Below are positions 44,794 to 48,328 of a DNA stretch of 59,930 bases, in pieces. The notes beneath the pieces were generated by a model that ran no database searches, was not told the origin of the DNA, and worked only from the letters and a program-made list of their open reading frames with translations. The stretch is taken from contig NZ_SAUZ01000026.1 of assembly GCF_004022215.1 (NCBI RefSeq), positions 1-59,930 on the forward strand. The letters run 5' to 3'. Positions within the stretch are counted from its first letter, which is position 1. Each line of letters starts with the position of its first letter. Both the position numbers and the translations under genes were made by a program. The stretch comes from Paenirhodobacter populi. Its GTDB lineage: Bacteria > Pseudomonadota > Alphaproteobacteria > Rhodobacterales > Rhodobacteraceae.

Positions 44794-46956
<2,163 letters not shown>

Positions 46957-47214: not shown

Positions 47215-47242
47215 AAAAAAAAGGCCGAGACAAAGCTCGGCC
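47215..47242 (-). terminator. Rho-independent terminator of the sRNA candidate
   Basis: On the minus strand GGCCGAG (47242-47236), six-base loop, CTCGGCC (47229-47223), then eight T (47222-47215). Confidence 0.85.
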
Positions 47243-47299
47243 ATAGTCCAACAGGGAGGTAGAAGATGATGAGAGTTTCCTCAAACCATCATCTTCTAC
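47215..47299 (-). ncRNA. Candidate trans-acting small RNA (~85 nt)
   Basis: On the minus strand a 13-bp perfect stem (GTAGAAGATGATG 47299-47287, CATCATCTTCTAC 47271-47259) is capped by an inner GAG-GAAA-CTC stem-loop. Then comes a single-stranded linker containing CTCCC (able to pair with Shine-Dalgarno sequences), then a rho-independent terminator GGCCGAG-CTTTGT-CTCGGCC followed by eight T. A sigma-70-like promoter ends five bases before the hairpin, so the transcript would start at its base. No reading frame is present. The layout is that of a compact stand-alone sRNA. Rhodobacter sRNAs with C/U-rich anti-SD loops are known, but I could not match it to a named one. Confidence 0.7.
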
Positions 47300-47303
47300 G
47301 CTT

Positions 47304-47332
47304 GATTTATGTGCAGTTTATGAATCAATCAA
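47304..47332 (-). promoter_or_regulatory. Promoter of the sRNA candidate
   Basis: On the minus strand -35 TTGATT (47332-47327), 17-base spacer, -10 TAAATC (47309-47304). AT-rich compared with its surroundings. The -10 is only a partial match. Confidence 0.5.
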
Positions 47333-47395
47333 GGAGAAACGACATTACGGATTTGCATAGCGGCTATGCGTGCAATCCGGCCCGGCGCGCTGGCG

Positions 47396-48328
47396 TCACT
47401 CGACGCTGTTTTCCGACGATTGCTGGCGGCGATAGGCGGTGATCTCTTCCTGAACGAATTCCCGAAAGGCCGTCACCCGGCGCGACTGGCGCAGTTCCTC
47501 GGGATAGGCGAGGAAAACCGGCACCTCGACGGATTCGACCTCGGGCAGGACGCGCTCCAGATCGGGGAAATCGATGGTCAGGTAGTCGGGCAGGACGCCG
47601 ATGCCGATATGGCTCAGCACCGCCTGCAACACGCCGAAGTAATTGTTCACGTTGAGGGTCGAGCGCACATCCTGCGCGCGGATGCGATGCGTCAGCTGCG
47701 CACCGGCCTGCACCTGCGGGGCCAGCGTGTTCTGGCTGACAAGGCGATGGTCGCGCATATCCTCCAGCCGCTCGGGGCGGCCGGCGCGCGCCAGATATTC
47801 CTTTGTCGCATAAAGCCGCATGCGGATGTTCAGCAGCCGCTTGCGCACCAGATCGGCCTGCGACGGCTCCTTCATGCGGATCGCCACATCCGCCTCGCGC
47901 ATCGGCAGGTCGAGCACGCGCTCTTCCAGCATCAGGTCGATCTTCAGGTCGGGATAACGGTCGTAGAGCTTGGACAGCCGCGGGGTCAGCCAGAGCGAGC
48001 CGAATCCGACGGTGGTGGTGACCTTCAGCTCGCCAAAGACCTCCTCCTCGGAATCGCGGATCCGGGCGGCGGCGGTGTCGAGCTTTTTCGCCATGGTCGA
48101 GGTGGCGTCGAACAGCAATTCCCCCTGTTCGGTCAGGATCAGGCCGCGGGCGTGGCGGTGGAACAGCGTGGTGCCAAGCGCATCTTCCAGTGCGCGGATC
48201 TGCCGGCTGACCGCCGATTGCGACAGCCTGAGCGAATCTCCCGCATGGGTGAGGGATCCCGCATCCGCGACCGCGTGAAAGATCCGCAGTTTGTCCCAAT
48301 CCATTCCCGCCATATGCGTCTGACTCAT
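47396..48328 (-). CDS. LysR-family transcriptional regulator
   Basis: The N-terminal winged helix-turn-helix is complete: MDWDKLRIFHAVADAGSLTHAGDSLRLSQSAVSRQIRALEDALGTTLFHRHARGLILTEQGELLF. A linker helix and LysR substrate-binding domain follow (VTTTVGFGSLWLTPRLSKLYDRYPDLKIDLMLEERV, LVSQNTLAPQ, VLQAVLSHIGIGVLPDYLTIDFPDLERVLPE). Length is 310 residues from ATG 48328. No cognate structural gene is adjacent, and murI is transcribed away. An inverted repeat right upstream suggests autoregulation. The effector is unknown. Confidence 0.93.
   Translation of the reverse strand: MSQTHMAGMDWDKLRIFHAVADAGSLTHAGDSLRLSQSAVSRQIRALEDALGTTLFHRHARGLILTEQGELLFDATSTMAKKLDTAAARIRDSEEEVFGELKVTTTVGFGSLWLTPRLSKLYDRYPDLKIDLMLEERVLDLPMREADVAIRMKEPSQADLVRKRLLNIRMRLYATKEYLARAGRPERLEDMRDHRLVSQNTLAPQVQAGAQLTHRIRAQDVRSTLNVNNYFGVLQAVLSHIGIGVLPDYLTIDFPDLERVLPEVESVEVPVFLAYPEELRQSRRVTAFREFVQEEITAYRRQQSSENSVE

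What the first reader, a model, noticed from the sequence alone, without database searches (positions are those of the whole stretch)
47215..47332. Compact new small RNA gene between purL and a LysR regulator
Sequence shows, on the minus strand: a -35/-10 pair with 17-base spacing, an RNA start predicted at the base of a perfect 13-bp hairpin with an inner GAG-GAAA-CTC cap, a CTCCC linker that could pair with Shine-Dalgarno sequences, and a terminator with eight T. No coding potential. Rhodobacter has several stress sRNAs with C/U-rich anti-SD motifs, but I cannot match this one to a named family.
Basis: partly seen in the sequence, partly recalled or inferred. Interest (0 to 1): 0.72.

Follow-up and report, generated by a model that had tools for sequence, protein, structure and literature searches.

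The report
Rhodobacter SorY-type stress small RNA
The short hairpin RNA gene looks real and is the local version of SorY, a stress small RNA known from Rhodobacter sphaeroides; it sits beside a LysR regulator that matches LsrB/VtlR, the controller of AbcR transporter-silencing RNAs in rhizobia, which suggests one old regulator-plus-RNA module shared across these bacteria.

Summary
In detail: an 84-nt minus-strand RNA unit (about 47298-47215) with stem-loop, C/U-rich linker and terminator. It folds far better than shuffles (z about -5), is present in 18 of 18 genus genomes held, and its stem shows two-sided changes. It is not new: it is the positional and sequence ortholog of R. sphaeroides SorY. 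The R. sphaeroides match coincides with the published SorY start, lies between the same LysR and purL genes, and shares the core ACCUCCCUGUUGGACU and promoter spacing. Rfam misses it because SorY's cut-off (111 bits) passes 1 of 296 family genomes.

The neighbourhood gave a link that none of my paper searches showed. The adjacent LysR is the LsrB/VtlR ortholog (best PDB match LsrB 9HH1; reciprocal best hit). A loose LsrB-type box lies upstream in 94 of 103 SorY-type sites. In other alphaproteobacterial families the ortholog, usually beside trxB, is followed by an RNA-like unit with a CCUCCCUG core (54 of 87 loci), which Rfam does not annotate. A model built from those alone ranks this RNA first in the window (E 7e-7). 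SorY thus looks like the Rhodobacterales counterpart of AbcR. Control by the LysR, and the targets, are inferred, not tested.

The parts
47215..47298 (-). SorY-type sRNA, 84 nt; 5' end carried over by alignment from the mapped SorY start of R. sphaeroides
   Evidence: fold z -5.0; SorY and SorX model matches; TSS position from PMC6238624 via L168
47259..47299 (-). 5' stem-loop: 13 bp here, 10 bp conserved, with GAG-GAAA-CTC cap
47245..47260 (-). Core linker ACCUCCCUGUUGGACU, anti-Shine-Dalgarno-like
   Evidence: invariant columns in 24 aligned sequences; exact core with GGCC in 3 of 3 Rhodobacteraceae and 0 of 237 other class genomes
47215..47242 (-). Intrinsic terminator GGCCGAG-loop-CTCGGCC plus eight T
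47305..47311 (-). -10 element CATAAAT, at -13 to -7
   Evidence: same offset as CCTAAAT of R. sphaeroides SorY
47327..47333 (-). -35 element CTTGATT, starting at -35; RpoH-like
   Evidence: CTTG-N14-21-C[CA]TANNT in 72 of 103 SorY-type sites, 0.3 in mononucleotide shuffles
47355..47369 (-). Palindrome GCATAGCCGCTATGC at -71 to -57; LsrB/VtlR-type box with CG where the published consensus has TG
   Evidence: only exact GCATAGCNGNYATGC site in the genome; loose box in 94 of 103 SorY-type sites
47396..48313 (-). LysR-type regulator, LsrB/VtlR ortholog, 305 aa, no cysteine
44794..46956 (-). purL, conserved downstream neighbour
   Evidence: NCBIfam PurL match over cut-off; synteny

Best explanation
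It is the SorY-type small RNA of this organism, probably a Rhodobacter. Shown by computation: an 84-nt unit with its own promoter-like and terminator elements, orthologous in sequence, promoter layout and gene order to SorY of R. sphaeroides, and with SorY-model matches in most Rhodobacteraceae genomes sampled. Inferred: an RpoH-type sigma factor transcribes it under stress; the LysR protein encoded just upstream, the LsrB/VtlR ortholog, binds the palindrome at -71 to -57 and activates it; with Hfq, the exposed linker ACCUCCCUGUUGGACU pairs with ribosome-binding sites, probably with a leaning to transporter solute-binding proteins, and lowers their translation and stability. In position, inputs and likely mechanism it is the Rhodobacterales counterpart of the AbcR sRNAs of rhizobia.
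For: SorY orthology: Rfam SorY 57.8 bits E 3e-11. The G076 SorY and SorX hits start at 1,632,645 and 2,598,225 against published 5' ends 1,632,642 and 2,598,224 of R. sphaeroides (PMC6238624 passages); that SorY locus has LysR (74% identical) and PurL (86%) in the same order as the window, with -35, -10 and box at the same offsets. Covariation. LsrB orthology: 9hh1 E 3.5e-73, next 1.1e-26, and 9HH1 is LsrB; reciprocal hit 3.7e-89, next 1.6e-35. Box: 94 of 103 SorY-type sites, 7.3 in dinucleotide shuffles; three-half-site form 59 against 0.5. Shared RNA core beside the ortholog in other families: 54 of 87 loci, 1.9 in mononucleotide shuffles; a model from 22 such RNA ends finds the window RNA first, E 6.6e-7, next 0.52. 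Mechanism by analogy: RpoH control, Hfq binding and transporter targets of SorY and SorX (PMC8307010 passages); AbcR control and targets (PMC8844928 passages).
Against: No expression data for this species. Rfam's own SorY cut-off is not met (57.8 of 111). The window box has CG where the published LsrB consensus has TG (strict form in 12 of 103 SorY-type sites), and it lies about 10 bp further upstream than in S. meliloti (-61 to -49). trxB is not beside the LysR here. The AbcR anti-SD motifs quoted for S. meliloti (CUCCUCCC, UUCCCCUC) differ from CCUCCCUGUU, and no named AbcR gene was aligned. Near-complementary sites in the own genome are no more frequent than the reversed control (15 against 13), and the best-pairing leader of the four folded is an aroA-like gene, not a transporter.
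Confidence: 0.75

Rival explanations
1. It is SorY driven by RpoH alone. The LysR is only a conserved neighbour, and the palindrome serves another protein.
For: The RpoH-like promoter is sufficient to explain stress induction; RpoHI/RpoHII control is reported for SorY; in S. meliloti AbcR2 is RpoH1-driven with no LsrB motif found.
Against: The palindrome is in 94 of 103 sites that have the LysR, but in 8 of 61 motif sites without it, and a similar three-half-site element lies beside the ortholog in 35 of 87 loci of other families.
Confidence: 0.25
2. The likeness of SorY to the RNAs beside lsrB elsewhere, and to AbcR, is convergence on a generic anti-Shine-Dalgarno linker plus terminator.
For: C/U-rich linkers recur in alphaproteobacterial sRNAs; model R1 has only 6 base pairs and is mainly a sequence profile; weak suhB, NsiR1 and RyhB matches also appear.
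Against: Same gene neighbour, similar upstream box and the shared 8-10 nt core; R1 finds 14 of 14 SorY/SorX-type loci offered (E 3e-11 to 1.7e-4), while the best of 18 other own-genome loci reaches 0.085.
Confidence: 0.2
3. A leader or attenuator of purL rather than a free sRNA.
For: It lies upstream of purL on the same strand.
Against: A terminator precedes purL by about 260 nt; in several relatives purL is 1 to 2.9 kb away while the RNA is kept beside the LysR; no riboswitch match at Rfam gathering level.
Confidence: 0.03

Closest known systems
SorY of Rhodobacter sphaeroides (Rfam RF02651)
   Same: Same gene order LysR-sRNA-purL, same core linker and terminator type, same promoter and box offsets; whole-model match 57.8 bits
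   Different: 5' stem sequence diverged, so the match is below the Rfam cut-off of 111; target and expression not known here
SorX (Rfam RF02784)
   Same: Core ACCUCCCUGUUGGAC and terminator; 42.1 bits against a cut-off of 46.6
   Different: SorX lies at the 3' end of an OmpR-type gene (30 of 30 best loci) and is processed by RNase E (PMC6238624 passages); the window RNA has its own promoter-like elements beside LysR
AbcR1/AbcR2 (alpha-r15) of rhizobia with LsrB/VtlR
   Same: Encoded just downstream of lsrB/vtlR; LsrB-type box upstream (AbcR1) or RpoH promoter (AbcR2); anti-SD pairing to transporter mRNAs (PMC7486931, PMC8844928 passages)
   Different: SorY combines both promoter features, has one anti-SD core of another sequence, is shorter (84 against 114-121 nt), and has no trxB neighbour
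MmgR/suhB (RF00519)
   Same: CUCCCU before a terminator; 20.4 bits
   Different: Below its cut-off of 41; locus and regulation not compared here

Membership tests
SorY, as the R. sphaeroides gene and its orthologs | Position between the same LysR and purL genes | tested here: met
   L168 at the published SorY coordinates and the window share the order
SorY, as the R. sphaeroides gene and its orthologs | Own promoter with TSS at the hairpin base | tested here: met
   -35, -10 and box at the same offsets as from the mapped SorY TSS; sequence evidence only
SorY, as the R. sphaeroides gene and its orthologs | RpoHI/RpoHII dependence, Hfq binding, takP target | not testable with these tools
   Reported for R. 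sphaeroides; no data for this species
Rfam RF02651 SorY | Score at or above the gathering cut-off of 111 bits | tested here: not met
   57.8 bits; 1 of 296 family genomes passes, so the RNA is not filed as an RF02651 member
Rfam RF02784 SorX | Score at or above 46.6 bits | tested here: not met
   42.1 bits
Rfam RF02784 SorX | 3' end of an OmpR-type gene | tested here: not met
   OmpR-type gene in 30 of 30 best SorX loci; the window RNA follows a LysR gene
AbcR (alpha-r15) | Encoded directly downstream of the lsrB/vtlR gene | tested here: met
   LysR orthology; RNA about 130 nt past its end
AbcR (alpha-r15) | LsrB box GCAT-N3-TG-N3-T upstream | tested here: inconclusive
   Window has GCAT-N3-CG-N3-T; loose form in 94 of 103 sites, strict form in 12
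AbcR (alpha-r15) | trxB-lsrB gene pair | tested here: not met
   TrxB motif in 0 of 80 named loci and not in the window, against 76 of 87 loci in other families
AbcR (alpha-r15) | Two anti-SD motifs | tested here: not met
   One linker core only
AbcR (alpha-r15) | Represses ABC transporter mRNAs | tested here: inconclusive
   Two solute-binding protein leaders among five candidate start sites, no enrichment overall

The most novel reading that the evidence does not exclude
An old LysR-plus-sRNA module runs through the Alphaproteobacteria: LsrB/VtlR activates an anti-Shine-Dalgarno sRNA encoded at its own 3' side through a GCAT-type box, often with three half-sites about 11 bp apart. AbcR of rhizobia, a so far unannotated CCUCCCUG RNA next to trxB-lsrB in many other families, and SorY (with its likely paralog SorX) of Rhodobacterales are versions of one RNA. 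LsrB is then not confined to Rhizobiales, and the Rhodobacter singlet-oxygen RNAs are relatives of the transporter-silencing AbcR RNAs.
Probability: 0.65. Interest if true: 0.7.

Novelty: new member of a known kind. Interest (0 to 1): 0.55.

Why it matters
The RNA itself is an ortholog of a known sRNA that Rfam misses because of a very strict cut-off. The wider point matters more: two separately named systems, AbcR with LsrB/VtlR in rhizobia and SorY/SorX in Rhodobacter, appear to share a regulator, a promoter layout and an RNA core. That supplies a candidate activator for SorY, gives a direct test in a harmless laboratory bacterium, and questions a published statement that LsrB is unique to Rhizobiales (PMC11975290).

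Tried and rejected
Rejected or led nowhere. MmgR/suhB, NsiR1, RyhB and other sub-threshold Rfam matches: all far below cut-off. purL leader: the distance to purL varies from about 0.13 to 2.9 kb while the RNA stays beside the LysR. A PhaR-like CTGC-N4-GCAG element upstream (note): dropped, since the window copy lacks it; not tested. A second copy in the own genome: the next SorY-model matches (29.9 and 24.3 bits) are, by eye, the terminator of an L33-like ribosomal gene and a CTCCCTGTCAGAC terminator with no LysR- or OmpR-like gene that I could see. At that loose threshold 8 of 14 control genomes also ring. Target search: CAACAGGGAG-N2-10-ATG in 18 genus genomes gives 63 rows (reversed control 0); 18 rows are the antisense of the sRNA gene itself. 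Loci came with 30 of the 63 rows and the others look scattered (alcohol dehydrogenase in 3 genomes, enoyl-CoA hydratase, a permease, solute-binding proteins); no single target shared by all was seen. CCAACAGGGAGG with one mismatch in the own genome: 15 sites against 13 for the reversed pattern, no enrichment. Rfam at gathering level on 80 of the 87 lsrB-ortholog loci: one tRNA, no sRNA. Paracoccus denitrificans sRNA table (PMC5107571 passages): coordinates could not be matched here. NCBIfam gives the LysR no match over a cut-off among the 25 families shown of 55.

Full report
What is there. On the minus strand, 47298-47215 holds an 84-nt RNA unit: a 5' stem-loop, a single-stranded linker ACCUCCCUGUUGGACU and an intrinsic terminator with eight T. 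It folds at z -5.4 (91 nt) and -5.0 (84 nt) against 200 dinucleotide shuffles, none as stable. A 134-base DNA query has one match in its own genome, and matches in 18 of 18 genus genomes held and 24 of 41 genomes in all. On 24 sequences (22 distinct; 18 of the genus, 6 from outside) the stem-loop has 7 pairs with changes on both sides; cells paired 81% against 75% shuffled; covariation score 0.186 against 0.089 shuffled, and at most 0.074 when the partner is slid. The outer three pairs of the window's 13-bp stem form in only 36% of cells, and one inner pair (columns 17-41) is unpaired in 17 of 22 sequences.

What it is. Rfam has no match at gathering level in the window. Below that level SorY (57.8 bits, E 3e-11) and SorX (42.1 bits, E 4.5e-9) cover the RNA. 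Among 296 genomes of the family the SorY model matches 280 at E<=0.001 and exceeds its cut-off in one, G076; 0 of 14 control genomes ring. SorX matches 283 and exceeds its cut-off in 236; one control, Caulobacter, rings below cut-off. G076 can be placed: its SorY and SorX hits start at 1,632,645 and 2,598,225 of one contig, and PMC6238624 (passages) gives the R. sphaeroides 2.4.1 5' ends as 1,632,642 and 2,598,224. At that SorY locus the order is LysR (74% identical to the window's), SorY, PurL (86%), as in the window. Of the 30 best SorY-family loci, 27 have a match to that LysR within 1.5 kb upstream on the same strand (16 of them also purL within 1.5 kb) and 3 have neither. Of 30 motif sites in the SorX-family loci none has either (the R. 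sphaeroides SorX locus lacks the exact motif and was not scored), while an OmpR-type gene is in 30 of 30. I take the window RNA to be the SorY ortholog. The genus is probably Rhodobacter: G010 has a contig of 3,738,958 bases, which I recall as the R. capsulatus SB1003 chromosome; that is recall, not a call.

Promoter. Carrying over the published SorY TSS puts the window start at 47298. Both species then have CTTG starting at -35, a -10 element at -13 to -7 (CATAAAT here, CCTAAAT there) and a GCAT-type box starting at -71. CTTG-N14-21-C[CA]TANNT is in 72 of 103 distinct SorY-type sites, 0.3 in mononucleotide shuffles. [quoted passage not shown] The sigma-70 scan finds 0 sites.

The neighbour. 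Its best relative among solved structures is 9hh1 (E 3.5e-73; next 1.1e-26), which PMC11975290 gives as A. tumefaciens LsrB. In the class, 141 of 240 genomes have a match at E<=1e-40, mostly one per genome; 3 of the 141 are Rhodobacteraceae. The ortholog in L292, searched back, hits the window LysR first (3.7e-89, 50%) and the next of 38 matches at 1.6e-35. PMC11975290 states that LsrB is unique to Rhizobiales, on a tree of three LsrB and nine OxyR proteins (section 31 read whole). The orthologs found here come from many family codes of the class, the window's among them. In A. tumefaciens the LsrB/VtlR ortholog activates AbcR1, encoded just downstream (PMC7486931 passages). For S. meliloti that paper reports no effect on AbcRs, whereas PMC8844928 (passages) reports that LsrB drives AbcR1 and RpoH1 drives AbcR2.

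Shared RNA and shared box. I examined 87 loci outside Rhodobacteraceae: the 27 best (L284-L310) plus the next 60 of 138 genomes with a match, so the set leans to close relatives. A TrxB motif lies upstream of the LysR in 76. CCTCCCTG occurs within 600 nt downstream in 54 (1.9 in mononucleotide shuffles) and TCTCCCAGA in 45. ATGC-N7-GCAT-N4-G near the LysR end is in 35 (0.12), the looser box in 38 (7.0), the strict published form in 16. In SorY-type sites the loose box is in 94 of 103 (dinucleotide shuffles 7.3), the three-half-site form in 59 (0.5), the exact palindrome in 51 (1.8); in 61 motif sites without that LysR the counts are 8, 6 and 5. The strict form with TG is in 12 of 103; the window has CG, while L016, the probable R. 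capsulatus locus, has TG. A covariance model (R1) built from 22 RNA ends of 20 such loci, with no Rhodobacteraceae sequence, ranks the window RNA first (E 6.6e-7; next 0.52). It also finds 14 of 14 SorY- and SorX-type loci offered, both R. sphaeroides RNAs included (E 3e-11 to 1.7e-4); the best of 18 other own-genome loci reaches 0.085. R1 has six base pairs and is mostly a sequence profile; its E-values are rough. Six of six such loci scanned at relaxed threshold match SorX below cut-off; at gathering level 80 of the 87 loci give one tRNA and no sRNA. The exact SorY core with GGCC is in 3 of 3 Rhodobacteraceae and 0 of 237 other genomes. That the RNAs beside trxB-lsrB are AbcR in the strict sense was not tested; no named AbcR gene was aligned, and the anti-SD motifs quoted for S. 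meliloti differ.

How it most likely works. Shown: the RNA unit, its conservation, its SorY orthology, the LsrB orthology of the neighbour, the conserved box. Inferred: RpoH-driven and LsrB-assisted transcription under stress; Hfq-dependent pairing of the linker with ribosome-binding sites; a leaning to transporter solute-binding proteins. In the own genome 14 sites besides the locus itself match the complement with one mismatch; with the locus, 15 against 13 for the reversed control. Five lie just before a possible start: polA-like and aroA-like (named by eye), one weak frame, and two solute-binding proteins, SBP_bac_5 and SBP_bac_8. Predicted pairing is -21.7 and -19.0 kcal/mol for the two solute-binding proteins (shuffles -10.3 each), -27.5 for aroA-like (-14.1) and -19.8 for polA-like (-12.9), so the strongest is not a transporter. 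SorY (malate transporter), SorX (spermidine transporter subunit) and AbcR (ABC transporters) are reported to target transporters; that is analogy, not proof. One difference stands out: the window LysR has no cysteine. Among 104 Rhodobacterales homologs 24 have none, 68 have one and 12 two; 18 of 27 homologs from other families also have none. Disulphide sensing as proposed for rhizobial LsrB (PMC11975290 passages) can therefore hardly be how this one works.

Literature standing. In the held library one text holds both 'AbcR' and 'SorY', an unrelated 1821 review; (42 papers, 15 listed) showed no title or abstract start joining the two systems. The original SorY and SorX papers are not held, so what they say on conservation or neighbours was not seen.

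Noticed in passing
L295 2594-3188 (G477); L287 2902-2970 (G351): In L295 three tandem RNA units follow the LsrB ortholog, one with the CCTCCCAGG hairpin form and two with a SorY-like hairpin before CCTCCCTGTTAGACT; possible intermediates between the two RNA types.
   Followed up: partly
L021/L025 (G018); L050 3777-3892: Two copies of the CTCCCTGTTGGAC core in one interval: in G018 both lie between the LysR and purL, 182 nt apart; in L050, 115 nt apart, in a locus with an OmpR-type gene.
   Followed up: no
L263 about 1507 (G014:C1:147146): A genus member has a second core, TACCTCCCTGTTGGACTGGGCCGGCGG with terminator-like repeat, away from its SorY locus and without an OmpR-type gene in the locus.
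   Followed up: partly
window 47355-47369 and class loci L284-L388: Half-sites ATGC-N7-GCAT-N7-ATGC spaced 11 bp suggest a wider LsrB/VtlR operator than the published 13-bp consensus.
   Followed up: partly
PMC5107571, sRNA table of Paracoccus denitrificans: Intergenic sRNAs of 80-85 nt with high reads (such as Intergenic 60 and 134) could be the SorY ortholog there; coordinates could not be checked.
   Followed up: no
Rfam RF02651 SorY: The gathering cut-off of 111 bits passes 1 of 296 Rhodobacteraceae genomes although 280 have a match at E<=0.001, so annotation pipelines will miss most SorY genes.
   Followed up: yes
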